Below are positions 960 through 50,972 of a stretch of DNA of 64,000 nucleotides, piece by piece. Made by a program: the position numbers and the translations under genes. Under the pieces are notes generated by a model that worked only from the letters and a program-made list of their open reading frames with translations, made no database searches and had not been told where the DNA came from. The DNA is from an uncultured Bacteroidia bacterium (GTDB lineage Bacteria > Bacteroidota > Bacteroidia > Bacteroidales > UBA932). Numbering within the stretch: position 1 is the stretch's first letter; each line of letters opens with the position of its first letter. Location: assembly GCA_902788095.1 (NCBI GenBank), contig CADAIT010000007.1, forward strand, positions 38,852 to 102,851, in the 5' to 3' direction.

Positions 960-2427
960 ATGACATGCCTTGCCTTCATCATATCTCTGCTGCTTTGCAC
1001 CGCCGCATTTTCTGAACTACAGCGCGGCGGACGGGCTGCCGTCCAATACGGTTTACGCCATAGCGCAGGGGGCCGATGGTGCCCTATGGATAGGCACCCG
1101 GAACGGCCTGGCCCGATTTGACGGCATGCACTTCCAAAGCTGGAAGGAGTACGGCCGGGTGAATGCGCTTACGGTGGATAAGGCGGGCCGATTGTGGGTA
1201 GGGAGCACACAGGGGCTCCGGGTAAGAGATGATGGCATTGCCGGCAACATCCGCGCGCTGCACACGGACGCGAAGGGCTATGTTTGGGCCACCGTGGGCG
1301 ATACGCTGCTGCTGAAACTGTCCTACAAAGACGGTATCCGGGAGGAGGCCCGCTGCGCTTATGAGAAGCGGGATTCTGAAGGCGACTACCCCTACTATCA
1401 AATATATGAGGCGCAGGACGGAAAGCTTCGGATAGCCGGCCGCCTAGTCTCTAACCAGTATGTAGAAGACAAACAGAGCCCGCATATCACCCTCCCCTCA
1501 TGGGAAGGGGTGCTGTGCATCGGAAGCTACGCCGAAACCGGCGGAAAGCTCTACGCGTTTGAGGACCACACCTCCCTCCTTCATACCGTTAAGGCGGGTG
1601 CGACCATCTCCCTGGGCCGGCTTCCCATTGCCCACGCCCGGCTTTTGGCAGACCATAAAGGCCAGCTCTGGGCTGCAGGCTCCTACGGCGTGGGACCGGT
1701 CAATACGGAAAAACCGGAAGACACGCCCGTCTATCAAACGGCCTCCACAGAACTCTACTGCCTCTTCGAGGATCGCCAGGGGAACCTCTGGGTAGGCGGC
1801 GATAACGGCCTCTCGGTCCTCTGTCCTGCCCTGCAGCAGGTGCGAACACTATCGTCGGCCAACATCAAGGCCCTCCTGGAAGACCATACCGGCAAAATAT
1901 GGATGGGCCGGGCCGAAGACCGCGTTTCCAGCCTCTACGAAGACCGTAGCGGCACCGTGTACGTGGGCCTGTGGAACAACACCGGCTGGGAGGTCTGGAA
2001 GGACGGCCGCAAAGCATACAAGGACCGCCTTACCGGTCCGCTCCCCAAGGAGCAGATAGAGGCTCGTTCCCTGGACGGCGCAAACTGGATCTCGGACTTT
2101 CTGGAAGACGGAGAAGGCCGTTTCTGGGTGGTCACTTGGGAAGGTGTTGGCCTCAATGAATGGGATCGCTACGCCCGAAAGAGCCTTCCGCCCCGCTTGC
2201 TCAGCCCCTTCCGCTATCCCTCCCTGCAAACCGATACCAACATTTACCTGAGTTCCCGTCTGGGCAGCCGCCTCATCGAAGATGCCAAGGGAAACCTGGT
2301 CTATGCCACCACGCAGACCGGCAAGGACCTCCCTTCCTTGTACAAGGAGACCTCCGCCGGCGGCCTGGCCATGCAGTACCGCAACAACAACGTCATCCCC
2401 ACCGGCCTGGAGTTCCAGGAGGACTAA
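960..2427 (+). pseudogene. Truncated HTCS-type beta-propeller gene fused to an L-serine dehydratase tail
   Basis: The ATG at 960 opens a signal peptide (MTCLAFIISLLLCTAA), but that frame leaves the propeller frame near 1000-1015. The propeller (FLNYSAADGLPSNTVYAIAQ...) continues in the next frame, open to 2427, so one extra base or two missing bases is implied. The body contains two-component regulator propeller repeats (DGALWIGTRNGLARFDG, DRQGNLWVGGDNGLSVL). The expected Y_Y_Y domain, membrane segment, kinase and AraC domain are all missing. Instead the last 38 residues match the C-terminus of the L-serine dehydratase encoded at 23785-25029. The intact full-length HTCS of this window (19946-23788) shows what has been lost. 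I read it as a dead sensor gene. A sequencing error could explain the frameshift but not the tail. Confidence 0.75.
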
Positions 2428-2430
2428 TCC
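2313..2430 (+). repeat. Second copy of the 3' end of sdaA
   Basis: These 118 bases match the reverse complement of 23782-23899 with three differences, all at third codon positions within the shared reading frame. The match begins abruptly at GCAGACCGG and ends six bases past the first base of the stop (TAATCC). It is a partial duplication or gene-conversion tract of the serine dehydratase 3' end. Confidence 0.9.
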
Positions 2431-2439
2431 ATCCTTGTG

Positions 2440-2570
2440 TGGGCCCGAGTTTAAGGACGAGAGACCCATTTAAGGCCTTTCGTCCTTATTTTCGCCCGAA
2501 TTCAAGGATGACATGCCGGTTTTGGCCTCCTCGTCCTTAAAATCGGCCCAAAACAAGGACGAGAAGCCTA
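2440..2570. repeat. REP-like palindromic repeat array next to the RAYT transposase
   Basis: Alternating TAAGGACGA and TCGTCCTTA arms are separated by about 20-base spacers and by a GGGC/GCCC-containing linker, so the region can fold into two or three hairpins. The last unit (about 2530-2564) is shared, base for base, with the reverse complement of a segment inside aroB (about 50371-50405). It lies immediately downstream of the transposase stop, the usual position of REP elements relative to their RAYT. Confidence 0.85.
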
Positions 2571-3473
2571 TTTGGCGGAGAGGGGGAACAGGTCGTTGAC
2601 AACCCGGATCGGTAAGTTCATGCATCGGGCAATTTGGGCGTTGCCTGCATTGTAATCCCACTTCAGCGTTTTGGCCAATCGCATCTTGTTCTCGTTGGAT
2701 AACACCTTGGGGCCCTCAACATGATATGTATCCCTGCACAGGCGGAAGATAACGCTCCACAACTCTTTATCGTCCAGGAACAACTGTTCACCGTGTCGTT
2801 TGGCAATCTCCAGCTGGGACTCAACGTTCTTTAGGGTCCAGTAAACAAACTCCCGGGCATTTTCAAACAGGGATTCCACGCGCCGATAATCCGTAAAACT
2901 TGACGGCAAGGCCGCACCATTGAGGACACGGATTCTCGGGTCGATTTCCCCATCGCGCTCATGCTTGAACGCCCGGCGCTGGGTCAAAGTCATGGCAGCG
3001 GCCGATTCTCCCTTGGGCATCAGGTCCGGCAAGCCGTTAAAATACAGGTAGCCACTGCACCATTTATAACTGAAAAGATTCACATTCTGCCTGTCCACAA
3101 AGGGGTTTCGGATCACATAAACAATCTCGTCCCTGAGCTGTTTCAGGCTACTGATGGGAATCAACTGCGGCGTAGCAGCCATGACCACCCTTGCCCGCCC
3201 GTCTGTCCGGTGCAGTTTCAGGAGCCGATTCTGCAGGTCGTCATAAAATGCGGCGCAGTCCTCCCTTGCCCCCTCCAGAATGAAATGCAGGTGGTTTTCC
3301 ATGATGGAGAAAGCGAGGAGCGTGCAGCGGCCTCCATAGGTGGCCAGTGCAATGAAGTTGAGCATTTCATTGAGCTCCTCCTCTGTCCGGAACAGCAATT
3401 CGTCCTCAATTGGTTTGGTGCAAAGGTGATAATACTCTCCTCCTTCAAAAAACAGTTGTTCACAGCGATTCAT
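2568..3473 (-). CDS. REP-associated tyrosine transposase (RAYT, Y1/HUH family)
   Basis: A 301-residue protein of the IS200-like Y1 transposase superfamily. The HUH motif is visible as ENHLHFIL (H61 and H63) after a YYHLCTKP strand. It is followed by the family's typical LRDEIVYVIRNPF...YKWCSGYLYF helix region, where the nucleophilic tyrosine is expected. The C-terminus (KMRLAKTLKWDYNAGNAQIARCMNLPIRVV) looks like a helix-turn-helix that could read the repeat. RAYTs cut and rejoin single-stranded REP palindromes. Here palindromic arrays lie directly downstream (2440-2570) and upstream (3611-3795), which fits a REP/RAYT unit rather than an ordinary insertion sequence. A TATCTTG-like promoter (3502-3509, minus) is possible but weak. 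The gene appears intact. Confidence 0.85.
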   Translation of the reverse strand: MNRCEQLFFEGGEYYHLCTKPIEDELLFRTEEELNEMLNFIALATYGGRCTLLAFSIMENHLHFILEGAREDCAAFYDDLQNRLLKLHRTDGRARVVMAATPQLIPISSLKQLRDEIVYVIRNPFVDRQNVNLFSYKWCSGYLYFNGLPDLMPKGESAAAMTLTQRRAFKHERDGEIDPRIRVLNGAALPSSFTDYRRVESLFENAREFVYWTLKNVESQLEIAKRHGEQLFLDDKELWSVIFRLCRDTYHVEGPKVLSNENKMRLAKTLKWDYNAGNAQIARCMNLPIRVVNDLFPLSAK

Positions 3474-3610
3474 ACAATCAGGCAGGACGATTAATTGTCC
3501 CGCCGCAAGATAAGCCTAATTACTGGACTTCATCGTTAGAAACATGAATTATTTCAGAAATTTTTCTACCGATTCGTGTGAAACAACATCCTCATCCTTG
3601 TTTTAGGCCT

Positions 3611-3795
3611 ATTTTAAGGACGAGAAGGGCAAAACCGGCGTCTCGTCCTTGAAAACGGGCATTTTTGAGGACGAGGAGGGTTAAACCCGGGTGTCATCCT
3701 TGAAAACGGGCATTTTTGAGGACGAGGAGGGTAAAACCCGGGTGTCATCCTTGAAAACGGGCATTTTTGAGGACGAGGAGGGCGGTGAAACGGGG
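3611..3795. repeat. Tandem 51-bp REP-like units upstream of the RAYT
   Basis: Three full units and one partial unit follow head to tail (about 3611-3662, 3663-3713, 3714-3764, 3765-3795). Each holds an AAGGACGAG or GAGGACGAG arm, a short G/C-rich middle (GGGT-AAACCCGGG) and a TCGTCCTT or TCATCCTT arm, followed by GAAAACGGGCAT. The two inner units differ by very little, so their tandem expansion is recent. The stretch 3474-3610 between the transposase start and the array holds nothing else recognisable. Confidence 0.9.
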
Positions 3796-3803
3796 AAAAG
3801 GTG

Positions 3804-3811
3804 TATCTTTG
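3804..3811 (+). promoter_or_regulatory. -7 promoter box of queH
   Basis: TATCTTTG lies 7 nt before the ATG at 3819 and begins within ten bases of the end of the repeat array. No good TTG is seen at -33 because the repeat occupies that place. Confidence 0.55.
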
Positions 3812-3818
3812 CAGCGAG

Positions 3819-4391
3819 ATGAAGACACAGGTGCATATTGAGGTGCCGGGCGGGGCACAGCGGGTGCTGCTGCATGCGTGCTGCGCACCGTGTTCCGGCG
3901 CCATCGTGGAATGCCTCATGGAACGGGGCATACGCCCGGTCATCTTCTATTCCAATTCCAATATCTTTCCCCGCGAGGAATACGACCATCGACGCAACGA
4001 GTGCCTCCGTTACGCCCAAAAATGGAACGTCGAGATTGTGGACGACGTCTATGACCACGATGCCTGGCGGCTCTGCGCCAAGGGCCTGGAGAAGGAGCCG
4101 GAACGCGGAAAACGCTGCCTGGAATGTTTCAAGCAGCGTTTGCTTCGGGCGGCACAGTATGCCTCCGACAACGGATTCGACGTTCTTGCCACCACCCTGG
4201 CCAGTTCACGCTGGAAGGACCTCGAGCAGGTGAATGAAGCCGGCCGATGGGCCTGTGAACAAGTTTCCGGCGTTACCTGGTGGGCCCAAAACTGGCGCAA
4301 GGGCGGACTCCAGGAACGTCGGAATCAAATCATTAAAGAAGAGAACTTCTACAACCAGCTGTTCTGCGGCTGCGAGTTTTCCCGGTATTAG
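3819..4391 (+). CDS. queH: Epoxyqueuosine reductase QueH
   Basis: A 190-residue protein that reduces epoxyqueuosine to queuosine in tRNA, the last step of queuosine synthesis. It is the non-cobalamin, iron-sulfur alternative to QueG. Visible hallmarks are the N-terminal HACCAPCSG pair of cysteines, the RCLECFKQRL cysteine pair in the middle, and YNQLFCGCEFS at the C-terminus. Length fits the family (formerly DUF208). An in-frame GTG at 3801 would place the start inside the promoter box, so the ATG at 3819 is preferred. The gene ends by overlapping the stop of the convergent barrel gene (4388). Confidence 0.93.
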   Translation: MKTQVHIEVPGGAQRVLLHACCAPCSGAIVECLMERGIRPVIFYSNSNIFPREEYDHRRNECLRYAQKWNVEIVDDVYDHDAWRLCAKGLEKEPERGKRCLECFKQRLLRAAQYASDNGFDVLATTLASSRWKDLEQVNEAGRWACEQVSGVTWWAQNWRKGGLQERRNQIIKEENFYNQLFCGCEFSRY

Positions 4392-47957: not shown

Positions 47958-49916
47958 AAACATTTCGTTAAAAGCAGGAAAGGACTTGGATACGCAGGCC
48001 ACGTCATCTATTTCAACGGGGCTGTCGGCCCCCAGGGCGGCCAGTTTGAGCGCCATGACCATGCGGTGGTCGGAGTGGGAGGCGAAGCGGCCGCCTTTCA
48101 GCAGATGGCCGGTGGCCAGGCGCCGGGACAGGCCCATGCCCTCCACCACCATCTCGTCTTCCTCCACGCGGACGGGAACGCCCATCTTGGAGAGCATCGC
48201 CTCGATGGCGGCGGCGCGGTCCGTCTCCTTGTGGCGCAGGCGCTCCACCCCCAGGAGATGGCTCTCGCCGGGGCAGAAGGCCGCCAGGACAGCCACGACG
48301 GGGAAAAGGTCCGGACAGTTGTTCAAATCGGCCCGGAAAGGACTCAGCGGAGCGCGTTTTACGTGAATGGGGCCGTCGGGGCCGTCCAGCTGGGACATGC
48401 TGGCACCGGCCTCCATGAGGATGTCCATGACGGAGATGTCGGCCTGCAGGGAGCGGGTGTCCAGGCCCGTTACTTCCACGTCGCCGAAGACGGCGCCCGC
48501 CACCAGGAACGGGGCGGCGCCGGACCAGTCGGCCTCGATGGAAAAATCGGCCGCCTGATAATGCTGATTGCCCTTTATGCGGAAATTCACCCCCGTGCAC
48601 AGGCTCCAGTCCTGGGTTTCCAGGAAAGCGTCGTCGCCCTCCATCTCGGAGCCTATCCTGATGCCGAATTTCTTGAGCACGTCCACCGTGATGAAAAGGT
48701 AGGGGAGGCTCCGGGGTTCGTGCACATAGAGGACGGATTTGCCGCCGGTCAGCGGCAGGGCGGCCAGGAGGCCGGAGAGAAGCTGCGAGCCCCCCTTGCC
48801 GGAGACGTCGGCCCGGCCGGGGTTGAGCGGTCCTGCCACCTTGAGCGGCAGACAGCAGTCGGTTTTCCGGGAGGCGCTGTTCTCCGGATACAGCCGCACC
48901 CCATAGGCGGCCATGATGTCATGGGCGTCCGTGAGGGGGCGCGTCAGCAGTGTCTTTTCTCCGGTAACCCGCACCGGTTCCGCGGAAAGGGCCGCCAGAA
49001 GGGGAATGGTCAGACGCGTCAGGAATCCGGACTCGCCGGTGTGCATTTCCGGGAGATGCAACGCTCCTTCCCGGGCATTGATTCCTTCTATAATGAGCTG
49101 TGAACCATTTACTTGCACCTTTGCACCCAGGACCCTGGCGAGCTGCAGCGCGCTTTCGTTGTCGCCGCAATCGGAGTAGCCGCCAAGGTGCGAAGTGCCT
49201 TCCGCAAGGGCCGCGGCGATGATGGCCCGCTGGGCAAAACTCTTGGAGGAGGGCATGGGCAGCGACGACGCCTTCACGAAATGGAAATCCCCATACAGCG
49301 CCTTCCGCATGCTTTCCGCGGTCCACTGCCCGGGAGCGGTGGCCTCTTCTTCGGAAAGACAGGCATACGTAAAGGGTGCACCCTGCCTTAACGCCTCCAG
49401 CCGCGAGGCCCGTCCCTTTTCGCCCATGCAAAAGGCGACCAGGGTGCCGGAATCCGCCTCCCGATACAAGTGGGCAATGACGGCATTATCGGCCTCCGAA
49501 GTGGCCGTGGTAGCTATTTTCACGAGGTCCGATCCGAACTGGCGGGCCCGGTCCACAAGGGACTGCAGCACCGGAAGGGACGGCGTGTTCTCGAAATTGT
49601 GGTAAGAACGGATGAGCATGGTGCCCCACTCGCGGCAGGCTTCGCGGATACGGCGTCCCACGGCAGCGGGGGCTTCCATCTCCAAATCCACATATTTGGC
49701 GCCGGAACGGATGGCCAGCTCCAGAAGCTGCGGCGCCTGCGGCTCTTCGTTCAGGCGGCAGGTAGCGATGAGGGGGACATCGGAATCGGAAAACAGCTGT
49801 TCTATCTCCTCGTCTTCCAGGGCACAGCGGTCCAGGCGGATTTCCGCCATTTCCACGGTCTCCAGAATCCGCAGAATCTCCTGATACTCTTTATTTTGTA
49901 TGCTGACGCAAATCAT
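47937..49916 (-). CDS. Fused type I 3-dehydroquinate dehydratase and EPSP synthase
   Basis: A 659-residue bifunctional shikimate enzyme. Residues 1 to about 212 are type I AroD: EIRLDRCALEDEEI, catalytic histidine in SYHNFENTP and Schiff-base lysine in LVKIATTATS. From about 213 the AroA domain follows: SLPMPSSKSFAQRAIIAAALAEG with the PEP-site lysine, GGYSDCGDNE, HTGESGFLTRLTIPLLAAL, DWSGAAPFLVAGA, RHKETDRAAAIEAML and SHSDHRMVMALKLAAL. The two activities flank shikimate dehydrogenase (AroE) and shikimate kinase, which are not in this window. The start lies inside the end of aroB (26-base overlap). The stop is contributed by a repeat. Confidence 0.92.
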   Translation of the reverse strand: MICVSIQNKEYQEILRILETVEMAEIRLDRCALEDEEIEQLFSDSDVPLIATCRLNEEPQAPQLLELAIRSGAKYVDLEMEAPAAVGRRIREACREWGTMLIRSYHNFENTPSLPVLQSLVDRARQFGSDLVKIATTATSEADNAVIAHLYREADSGTLVAFCMGEKGRASRLEALRQGAPFTYACLSEEEATAPGQWTAESMRKALYGDFHFVKASSLPMPSSKSFAQRAIIAAALAEGTSHLGGYSDCGDNESALQLARVLGAKVQVNGSQLIIEGINAREGALHLPEMHTGESGFLTRLTIPLLAALSAEPVRVTGEKTLLTRPLTDAHDIMAAYGVRLYPENSASRKTDCCLPLKVAGPLNPGRADVSGKGGSQLLSGLLAALPLTGGKSVLYVHEPRSLPYLFITVDVLKKFGIRIGSEMEGDDAFLETQDWSLCTGVNFRIKGNQHYQAADFSIEADWSGAAPFLVAGAVFGDVEVTGLDTRSLQADISVMDILMEAGASMSQLDGPDGPIHVKRAPLSPFRADLNNCPDLFPVVAVLAAFCPGESHLLGVERLRHKETDRAAAIEAMLSKMGVPVRVEEDEMVVEGMGLSRRLATGHLLKGGRFASHSDHRMVMALKLAALGADSPVEIDDVACVSKSFPAFNEMFDSLLSF

Positions 49917-50946
49917 CGATAGCCTCGTTAACCGTTATTTCCTGCATGACAGGCTCCCCAGGGCCTTTCAGCAGGATGAATTTCACTTTTTCTCCGGCAG
50001 CCTTCTTGTCGTTCCGCATGGCTTCCCCCAGCGCCTGGAGCGGATAGGGGCACTGCACCGGAAGGCCGATGGCTTCGAAATCGGCCCGCAACTTGTTCGC
50101 AAGGCCGACGGGGGCCAGGTTTCTGCGCTCCGACAGGCGGGCGGCCAGGACGATGCCCATGGCTACCGCCTCTCCGTGGTGAATGTCGTCCCCCCATTGC
50201 TGCGCCAGATGCTCGATGGCGTGGCCGAAGCTGTGGCCCAGGTTCAATTTGGCGCGTTCGCCATACTCCTGAGGGTCCCTGGCCACTATATCGGCCTTGA
50301 TGGCCGCCGCCCGCCGGATGTCGTCCTCAAATTGGGCCGATTTTAAGGACGAAGTGCCCATTTCGGCCCTCTCGTCCTTGTTTTGGGCCGATTTTAAGGA
50401 CGAGACGAGGGCGGCATAGGCCGGACCGTCGCCAATAAGGAAGGTCTTGAGCAGTTCCGACAGGCCGCATCGCCAGTCCCGCTCCGGCAGCGTACGCAGG
50501 AACGACGCCTCCAGCACCGTGAATTCCGGCATGCGGAAGGCTCCCAGCATGTTTTTGTAGCCGTCCAGGTTTACGCCCGTTTTCCCGCCGATGGCAGCGT
50601 CCACCTGCGCAAGGAGGGTGGTGGGAAAATTGGCATACCGGATGCCCCTTTTGTAAATGGCCGCCGCAAAGCCCGCCAGGTCCGTGGTGATGCCGCCGCC
50701 GACGGCCAGAAGAAAAGCCTGGCGGGAGGCCCCTGCTTCCAAGAGCCGTCGGCATAGTGCCTGCACCGTTTCCAGGGTTTTCCCCTGTTCGGAGGCATCC
50801 AGGCCGAACGCGCCCTTTACAGGCACGGCCGACTGCACCTCCCGGGCCTGCCGGTCCACGTTCCGGTCAAAGACCAGATACAGCTCCGGCTCCGCCTGCA
50901 GGCGGGCGATGGCGTCAGGAAGGGATATAATCACAGGAGTGGACAT
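49891..50946 (-). CDS. aroB: 3-dehydroquinate synthase with a repeat-encoded segment
   Basis: A 351-residue NAD-dependent enzyme for the second step of the shikimate pathway. Landmarks are LAVGGGITTDLAGFAAAIYKRGI, FPTTLLAQVDAAIGGKTGVNLDGYKNMLGAF, the metal-site region LNLGHSFGHAIEHL and HHGEAVAMGIVLAA. Residues about 179-206 (SSLKSAQNKDER..., SSLKSAQFEDD) are encoded by two arms of the RAYT-linked repeat and replace the helix that normally joins the two halves. The frame is unbroken. An alternative start one codon upstream (50949) is equally possible. First gene of aroB-aroDA-aroC. Confidence 0.93.
   Translation of the reverse strand: MSTPVIISLPDAIARLQAEPELYLVFDRNVDRQAREVQSAVPVKGAFGLDASEQGKTLETVQALCRRLLEAGASRQAFLLAVGGGITTDLAGFAAAIYKRGIRYANFPTTLLAQVDAAIGGKTGVNLDGYKNMLGAFRMPEFTVLEASFLRTLPERDWRCGLSELLKTFLIGDGPAYAALVSSLKSAQNKDERAEMGTSSLKSAQFEDDIRRAAAIKADIVARDPQEYGERAKLNLGHSFGHAIEHLAQQWGDDIHHGEAVAMGIVLAARLSERRNLAPVGLANKLRADFEAIGLPVQCPYPLQALGEAMRNDKKAAGEKVKFILLKGPGEPVMQEITVNEAIDDLRQHTK
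50330..50412. repeat. RAYT-linked REP-like element inside aroB
   Basis: Arms TTTTAAGGACGA and CTCGTCCTTG alternate with GGGCCGA linkers. The reverse complement of about 50371-50405 matches, base for base, about 2530-2564 beside the transposase at the other end of the window. Confidence 0.92.
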
Positions 50947-50964
50947 CATACGGCGTTCAGTCCA

Positions 50965-50972
50965 CAAAGATA
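50965..50972 (-). promoter_or_regulatory. -7 promoter box of the aro operon
   Basis: The minus strand reads TATCTTTG about 15-18 bases before the aroB start. Confidence 0.6.

What the first reader, a model, noticed from the sequence alone, without database searches (positions are those of the whole stretch)
2440..3795. A REP/RAYT unit with its own repeat arrays in a Bacteroidales chromosome
The HUH transposase at 2568-3473 is bracketed by two differently organised arrays of the same palindromic arms (AAGGACGAG/CTCGTCCTT): hairpin-type downstream, 51-bp tandem upstream. Related copies lie tens of kilobases away (aroB at 50.3 kb and a degenerate copy at 8.4 kb). This is the arrangement of a transposase that mobilises or maintains short non-autonomous palindromes. 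The arms, linkers and spacing look specific to this lineage and may be an undescribed REP family.
Basis: partly seen in the sequence, partly recalled or inferred. Interest (0 to 1): 0.85.

Follow-up and report, generated by a model that had tools for sequence, protein, structure and literature searches.

The report
Palindrome arrays flanking a REP-type transposase
A Bacteroidales genome carries a single-strand-DNA transposase-like gene bracketed by its own 51-bp palindromic repeats, copies of which are scattered through the genome and sit in frame inside some essential genes; many related genes each have a differently 'lettered' repeat built on the same 51-bp plan.

Summary
The gene at 2568-3473 (-) encodes a 301-aa HUH/Y1 protein; its predicted fold best matches E. 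coli TnpA-REP bound to a REP hairpin. Both flanks carry the same 51-bp-step array of near-palindromic 32-bp units (4 and 3 units).

The repeat is dispersed: 33 units in 13 clusters in this draft genome, all 20 neighbour spacings exactly 51 bp. Three genomes with orthologous RAYTs have 31-59 units; 142 of 149 other sampled genus genomes have 4 or fewer, G005 (20, no close RAYT found) being the main exception. aroB holds two units in frame; relatives have 0, 2 or 3.

Larger result: in 96 related RAYT loci the top flank periodicity is ~51 bp (or twice that) in 82, against 7 of 78 distant flanks, while arm sequence changes from RAYT to RAYT; 27 of 30 same-genome pairs share no repeated 8-mer. A GTAG tag is not evident. 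Matches occur in 13 of 25 genera of the family, none outside the own genus at a stricter cut-off in an order sample. I call it a new, diversified variant of the REP/RAYT kind. Transposition is inferred, not shown.

The parts
2568..3473 (-). RAYT-like HUH/Y1 gene, 301 aa, long C-terminal extension after the catalytic region
   Evidence: ORF; H61, H63, Y119, N123 invariant in 41 aligned relatives; model pLDDT 93.1, best PDB match 4er8 TnpA-REP/REP complex
2429..2562 (.). RAYT-downstream array: three 32-bp near-palindromic units at 2429, 2480, 2531 (51-bp step)
   Evidence: own-genome listing C7:41280-41413
3592..3776 (.). RAYT-upstream array: four units at 3592, 3643, 3694, 3745 (51-bp step)
   Evidence: own-genome listing C7:42443-42627
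3474..3590 (-). leader between upstream array and start codon, conserved in three orthologues, one of which has a different upstream neighbour gene
   Evidence: 89.7% over 117 bp (L065), 78.2% over 101 (L066, feoB upstream), 82.7% over 104 (L067)
2526..3500 (-). tract 95-100% identical to L065 in 75-nt windows while windows outside it are 77-95%: probable recent lateral exchange of the RAYT
   Evidence: sliding identity; gene-by-gene identities
50321..50403 (-). two-unit copy in frame in aroB (residues SSLKSAQNKDERAEMGTSSLKSAQFEDD); exact insertion boundary not determined
49891..50967 (-). aroB (3-dehydroquinate synthase) carrying the copy
   Evidence: PF01761 and PF24621
8399..8453 (.). degenerate single unit 3' of feoB; same site has three units in L065
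   Evidence: not significant alone

Best explanation
It is a REP/RAYT-type system (a 'REPtron'). The RAYT is a single-strand-DNA HUH endonuclease that recognises its cognate near-palindrome, presumably on one strand and on the lagging-strand template, and cuts and rejoins it, so that a unit of typically two palindromes 51 bp apart (about 84 bp) is copied or moved to new sites, intergenic or in frame inside genes. Arrays then grow and shrink in 51-bp steps by slippage or recombination. The 51-bp step and an A/T-rich, GCC-containing loop are common to the family; the arms are the changeable, RAYT-specific part. Shown: gene, motifs, predicted fold, arrays, dispersal, co-occurrence with the RAYT, different unit numbers (0, 2, 3) at aroB, constant period with changing arms. 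Inferred: that the RAYT does the moving, strand preference, arms as specificity determinant.
For: Fold: 4er8 top, E 4.1e-4, prob 1.00, TM by target 0.62 (by query 0.36, rmsd 12.4 over 181 columns), the only match at E<=0.001. Motifs: H61, H63, Y119, N123, Q280 invariant in 41. Dispersal: 33 units, 13 clusters, 20 of 20 neighbour spacings = 51. Co-occurrence: 33/55/59/31 copies with an orthologous RAYT (reversed-pattern control 3/2/0/2); 142 of 149 others 4 or fewer. A second family (CCAAGTGCA arms) occurs in 3 of 151 genomes: G140 (16, genome of RAYT L022 with these arms), G139 (8), G147 (1); control 0. aroB: 2 units in window, G005, G151, 3 in G037; of 30 aroB loci fetched 27 have no unit of this family, and one of these (G139) has a pair of the CCAAGTGCA family at the same place. 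Period: 82 of 96 loci vs 7 of 78 distant flanks vs 3 of 96 gene bodies; 13 of 20 in other genera. Arm-RAYT linkage: 16 of 22 pairs at 70% identity or more share a repeated flank 8-mer; 5 of 57 at 55-70%; 262 of 5,916 below 55%.
Against: No movement observed. G005 carries 20 copies and G139 8 of the second family with only distant RAYT matches in their drafts; six further genomes without an orthologous RAYT have 5-11 matches. Conversely the RAYT locus of G084 repeats CAAGTGCA four times but its genome scores 0 with the strict pattern, so patterns undercount. The 32-nt unit shows no compensatory pairing: at most variable positions Watson-Crick pairs are at or below the shuffled mean (104 units), which polarity (C8/A25 or T8/G25) explains but which is not support for a conserved stem. 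Adjacent polar units mostly point the same way (20 of 24, not all independent), unlike the inverted doublets of REPINs. One joined-flank empty-site test was uninformative: right flank found in all 12 genomes, left flank only in the source genome. In 14 of 96 loci and 7 of 20 loci of other genera the top period is not about 51 or twice it. Sequence profiles of solved structures match only weakly (best E 0.013 IS200-type 2xm3; 4er8 0.75).
Confidence: 0.8

Rival explanations
1. Domesticated enzyme with passive repeats: the RAYT has a host role and the arrays are its binding or regulatory sites; copies spread long ago and are now shuffled only by host recombination.
For: In G000 the next RAYT relative is only 28% identical, so this one is single-copy there; an inversion of the queH-porin-feoB segment between window/L065 and L066 with ends at repeats can be host recombination; many repeat sites are shared between G000 and G151.
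Against: Unit number differs at the same site (window vs L065 arrays, aroB 2 vs 3, C12 3 vs L126 2, C4 1 vs L116 2), though slippage alone could do this; repeats nearly absent in most genomes without the RAYT.
Confidence: 0.3
2. The RAYT plus its flanking inverted arrays is itself a mobile element (IS200-like) that relocates as a unit.
For: In L067 feoB abuts its neighbour with no repeat while in L066 the whole RAYT unit lies between the two; the RAYT ORF is 97.3% identical to L065 while queH is 86.6% and feoB 87.9%, with the identity drop at or near the arrays.
Against: Single copy in G000; an inversion through repeats explains much of the rearrangement; homologous exchange explains the identity tract; the ancestral gene order was not settled. 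[quoted passage not shown]
Confidence: 0.2
3. Ordinary transcription-terminator or mRNA-stability hairpins amplified by tandem duplication, with the RAYT a bystander.
For: Some copies lie at gene 3' ends (feoB, nhaC-like); single-strand folding is strong for the aroB copy and the downstream array (z -5.5, -6.4), weaker for the upstream array (z -2.3).
Against: No Rfam match in 2300-3900 at gathering score; in-frame copies inside aroB, tilS and a PF01168 gene; arm identity tracks RAYT identity.
Confidence: 0.07

Closest known systems
REP/RAYT (TnpA-REP) systems of Proteobacteria: E. coli REPtron; Pseudomonas REPINs (passages of PMC3116915, PMC2817692, PMC8266576)
   Same: HUH/Y1 enzyme bracketed by its own palindromes, dispersed copies usually as doublets, one repeat family per enzyme, fold like 4er8
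   Different: No GTAG tag evident (0 of 202 short loops, 3 of 159 long); about 51-bp step shared by many families; polar neighbours mostly same orientation; tens rather than hundreds of copies; protein about 300 aa
TnpA-Y1 subclass 2.6 / RAYT group 5 (Bacteroidetes; passages of PMC6006769)
   Same: Mostly Bacteroidetes, NH[LIV]H motif, no GT[AG]G, atypical structures around the gene with copies elsewhere
   Different: Published median length 179 aa and a WQ motif; here about 300 aa and no conserved W between HUH and Y; a constant step was not mentioned in the passages I read. Member sequences were not compared
TIRYT / TIRtrons (passages of PMC3733652)
   Same: RAYT-like genes flanked by long inverted repeats unrelated to GTAG REPs; resembles paralogues L002 and L004
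   Different: The window locus has periodic palindrome arrays, not single long TIRs
Rickettsial palindromic elements and intragenic REPs (passages of PMC3733652)
   Same: Short palindromic repeats inserted in frame, often dimers or groups encoding 20-30 residues
   Different: The CGTC-type repeats described there lack a dedicated transposase; here a cognate RAYT is present

Membership tests
REP-associated tyrosine transposase (RAYT/TnpA-REP) | HUH motif plus single catalytic Tyr followed by Asn | tested here: met
   H61, H63, Y119, N123 invariant in 41; catalysis itself not tested
REP-associated tyrosine transposase (RAYT/TnpA-REP) | Profile membership at curated cut-offs (PF01797, NF047646) | tested here: not met
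   14.5 bits vs 23 and 19.5 vs 80 for the window protein; hits in 28 and 30 of 41 relatives at E<=1, best E 1.6e-5 and 2.7e-8
REP-associated tyrosine transposase (RAYT/TnpA-REP) | Y1 transposase fold | tested here: met
   predicted model; 4er8 top hit, E 4.1e-4, then IS200-type transposases at E 0.003 and above
REP-associated tyrosine transposase (RAYT/TnpA-REP) | Gene flanked by inverted palindromic repeats that recur in the genome | tested here: met
REP-associated tyrosine transposase (RAYT/TnpA-REP) | Cuts and rejoins cognate single-stranded repeat | not testable with these tools
   needs biochemistry
GTAG REP superfamily | GT[AG]G tag next to the hairpin | tested here: not met
   GTAG in 0 of 202 short and 3 of 159 long loops between repeated arms, background 5%; GTGG and the outer ends of arrays were not counted
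CGTC REP superfamily | Unpaired CGTC tag, no dedicated transposase | tested here: inconclusive
   CGTC in 10 of 202 and 19 of 159 loops vs 8% background of short-loop length; position next to a stem not tested; in this family CGTC lies inside the arm, and a cognate transposase is present
REPIN (inverted REP doublet) | Doublet is the dispersed unit | tested here: met
   12 of 13 own-genome clusters have two or more units
REPIN (inverted REP doublet) | Two units in inverted orientation | tested here: not met
   20 of 24 polar neighbour pairs same orientation; the other neighbour pairs contain a symmetric or unclassed unit
TnpA-Y1 subclass 2.6 (group 5) | NH[LIV]H, WQ, YIH[QN]NP, median 179 aa | tested here: inconclusive
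   HUH fits, Y motif is YViRNp, no conserved W before Y, about 300 aa; no subclass 2.6 sequences were aligned

The most novel reading that the evidence does not exclude
A clade-wide 'address system': one family of single-strand transposases, up to 12 matches per genome, reads palindromes built on a near-invariant frame (51 bp step, about five helical turns, shared A/T-GCC-A/T loop) while the arm letters are an exchangeable address co-evolving with the enzyme, so that co-resident systems do not cross-react; their two-unit copies also seed 28-residue in-frame modules in essential proteins such as AroB and TilS, lengthening in 17-residue steps.
Probability: 0.35. Interest if true: 0.78.

Novelty: new variant of a known kind. 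Interest (0 to 1): 0.62.

Why it matters
RAYT-REP specificity has been dissected for a few enzymes (three duos in PMC8266576, abstract). Here nature offers around a hundred enzyme-repeat duos with one geometry and different arms, some side by side in one genome: a direct test of how an HUH enzyme reads a hairpin and how such systems diversify without cross-talk. The in-frame copies in aroB, tilS and a PF01168 gene show a repeat whose 51-bp step (17 codons) lets arrays lengthen inside genes without frameshift. Such repeats may also break assemblies and mislead annotation (inference).

Tried and rejected
Reading the two arrays as different structures: rejected, same 51-bp step. Hairpin with compensatory arms: not supported; the units have polarity instead. 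Classical inverted REPIN doublets: not met. GTAG tag: not met; CGTC tag: inconclusive. Rfam: nothing at gathering score in 2300-3900. The feoB outgroup search did not settle which gene order is ancestral; feoB 3' neighbours vary between species. The single joined-flank test was uninformative. The 8.4-kb copy is not significant alone. The 8-mer enrichment is weak taken locus by locus, because 17 of 193 control windows reach 4-5. A first recount of aroB loci used too strict a motif and missed ORFs; one search replaces it.

Literature: searched for RAYT, REPIN, REPtron, TnpAREP, Bacteroidetes/Bacteroidales, Cryptobacteroides, 51 bp and Rickettsia terms. Passages read: PMC6006769, PMC3733652, PMC2817692, PMC3116915, PMC8266576 (also abstract and outline). 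No paper was read whole. The held library is open-access only; the Bertels 2017 classification was seen only as cited in PMC6006769. PMC2996958 was seen in a search listing only.

Full report
WHAT IS THERE. The gene at 2568-3473 (-) encodes 301 aa with an HUH motif (MENHLHF) and a Y-x-x-x-N motif (YVIRNPF). It falls below the curated cut-offs of Pfam Y1_Tnp (14.5 vs 23 bits) and NCBIfam REP_Tyr_transpos (19.5 vs 80 bits). In 41 aligned relatives H61, H63, Y119, N123 and Q280 are invariant. AlphaFold2 gives pLDDT 93.1 and pTM 0.88, and Foldseek's best PDB match is 4er8, TnpA-REP bound to a REP hairpin (E 4.1e-4, prob 1.00, TM by target 0.62, by query 0.36), followed by IS200-type transposases at E 0.003 and above. 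By sequence profile the best solved relatives are weak (2xm3 E 0.013, 4er8 0.75).

THE ARRAYS. Both flanks carry units 5'-TCRTCCTY-N16-RAGGAYGA-3' (up to 2 mismatches) every 51 bp: 2429, 2480, 2531 and 3592, 3643, 3694, 3745. Many units have polarity (C8/A25, or T8/G25 on the other strand); 20 of 24 polar neighbour pairs point the same way (sites shared between genomes are counted more than once). Variable positions do not covary as Watson-Crick pairs (104 distinct units), so the unit is a polar near-palindrome rather than a perfectly maintained stem. As single-stranded DNA the aroB copy, the downstream array and part of the upstream array fold with z -5.5, -6.4 and -2.3.

DISPERSAL AND CO-OCCURRENCE. 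The draft genome (2.16 Mb, 83% complete) has 33 units (up to 1 mismatch; reversed-pattern control 3) in 13 clusters; 12 of 13 have two or more units and all 20 neighbour spacings are exactly 51. The genomes of the three closest RAYT relatives have 55 (RAYT 98% aa, L065), 59 (87%, L066 = G037) and 31 (88%, L067). Among 151 genus genomes sampled the two with an orthologous RAYT (86% or more), G000 and G037, have 33 and 59; of the other 149, 142 have 4 or fewer; the exceptions are G005 20, G056 11, G085 8, G104 7, G146 7, G119 6, G125 5. The reversed-pattern control gives 0-9 per genome, highest in G105. G005 had one distant RAYT match (E 1.1e-16), so it is either an orphan population or an assembly gap. 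A second family was tested: CCAAGTGCA-N14-TGCACTTGG (up to 1 mismatch) occurs in 3 of 151 genomes (G140 16, G139 8, G147 1), control 0; G140 is the genome of the RAYT (L022) whose arrays have these arms. G139 has only a distant RAYT match (E 5.2e-14), and G084, whose RAYT locus L012 repeats CAAGTGCA, scores 0, so the strict pattern undercounts.

INTRAGENIC COPIES. aroB was found in 135 of 151 genus genomes; the best 30 loci were fetched. Of these 30, three hold units of this family in the open frame: the window's own and G005 two, G037 three (one more 17-codon step); 27 hold none. G151's aroB (L115, not among the 30) also holds two. One of the 27, G139, holds a pair of CCAAGTGCA units, 52 bp apart, at the same place in the protein: different families have hit one site. 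Several others have other extra residues there, and L049 a short SSLKKAVFAD stretch that the DNA pattern does not score. TilS (insert between PF01171 and TilS_C) and a PF01168 protein carry in-frame two-unit copies in both G000 and G151; no relatives without them were examined for these two. So 3 of 13 clusters in G000 are intragenic by this evidence; the others were not all examined gene by gene.

CHANGE AT SHARED SITES. Unit number differs between G000 and G151 at the RAYT arrays (upstream 4 vs 2, downstream 3 vs 4), at C12/L126 (3 vs 2) and at C4/L116 (1 vs 2). Two G000 clusters (C2, C13) had no counterpart with both flanks among the 19 G151 loci compared, and C21 matched on one flank only; absence at the orthologous place was not shown. 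In L066 the queH-porin-feoB block is inverted relative to the RAYT compared with the window and L065, with ends at repeats; in L067 feoB abuts its neighbour gene with no repeat, where L066 has the RAYT unit. The RAYT ORF is 97.3% identical (nt) to L065 although queH is 86.6% and feoB 87.9%; against L066 and L067 it is 80%, lower than queH (88%) and feoB (86%) but higher than a porin-like gene nearby (77%). High identity to L065 spans about 2526-3500: probably a recent lateral exchange.

THE FAMILY RULE. 123 of 151 genus genomes have a relative at E<=1e-10, up to 12 matches in one genome. I took 96 RAYT loci: 4 of the own genome, 29, 60 stretches that I picked down its ranked list and 3; they are related, not independent. 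The most frequent repeat distance in 500+500 bp of flank is 50-52 or 101-103 bp in 82 of 96, against 7 of 78 distant flanks long enough to score and 3 of 96 RAYT gene bodies. In 20 loci picked from other genera of the family it is 13 of 20 (104 was also counted there). Arms differ: pairs of RAYTs at 70% identity or more share a repeated flank 8-mer in 16 of 22 cases, at 55-70% in 5 of 57, below 55% in 262 of 5,916 (110 of 116 loci have repeated 8-mers; pairs with too short an overlap were dropped). Same-genome RAYT pairs share none in 27 of 30, though some of these loci have only 0-2 repeated 8-mers. Loops (short and long) are enriched in AAA (61% and 76% vs 25%) and GCC (62% and 64% vs 39%; background matched to short-loop length), and GTAG is absent or rare. 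The core AAAATCGGCCCAAAA is seen between different arms in G000 and G140.

DISTRIBUTION. With the 41-member profile, 118 of 199 genomes and 13 of 25 genera of the family have a match at E<=1e-6. In an order sample of 344 genomes and 194 genera only the own genus matched at E<=1e-15 (2 genomes; not all first-look candidates were scored, and two members of another genus of the family, negative there, were positive at the looser cut-off), so restriction to the family is likely but not proven. No call names the genus; Cryptobacteroides is my inference. Named relatives are 'Bacteroidales bacterium UBA3764', isolate RUG331 and others.

INTERPRETATION. The best account is a REP/RAYT system in which the enzyme moves or copies two-unit palindromes through single-stranded DNA, as suggested for proteobacterial REPs (passages of PMC3116915, PMC8266576). 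The closest published group is TnpA-Y1 subclass 2.6, mostly Bacteroidetes, without GT[AG]G and with atypical structures (passages of PMC6006769); length and the missing W separate the present family, but no 2.6 sequences were aligned here. What I did not find in the passages read or the listings is a constant repeat step held across many RAYTs whose arms differ. In-frame intragenic REPs and several RAYTs per genome are already known (passages of PMC3733652, PMC2817692). Hence: new variant of a known kind.

Noticed in passing
L002 (1293-1447 and 3507-3653), L004 (1182-1358 and 3392-3557): Two RAYT paralogues of the same genome are bracketed, together with what reads as one neighbouring gene each, by about 150-180-bp inverted copies unlike the 51-bp arrays (TIRtron-like).
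   Followed up: partly
L003 1079-1127 and 2440-2488: Third paralogue flanked by an inverted 49-bp repeat with a GGGCCGATTTTGC core; its top lag is 51 but with a low score of 8.
   Followed up: partly
L222, L224, L232 downstream of feoB: The feoB 3' end carries what look like other repeat arrays in other species, suggesting a recurrent insertion place.
   Followed up: no
G000:C7:36513-36748 (L266), just left of the window: Five-unit cluster between DNA matching L065's nhaC-like gene and an extra feoB 3' fragment of about 195 bp; a 304-bp stretch there is 96% identical to L065 while the intact feoB is 88%.
   Followed up: partly
L119, L123, L262, L002: Another short repeat containing TCATGCCCGG, in places palindromic with CCGGGCAT, recurs beside several of these sites (seen by eye).
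   Followed up: no
loci such as G144:C101, G116:C9, G018:C31, G135:C43: Several RAYT relatives carry one in-frame stop, suggesting decay of some copies.
   Followed up: no
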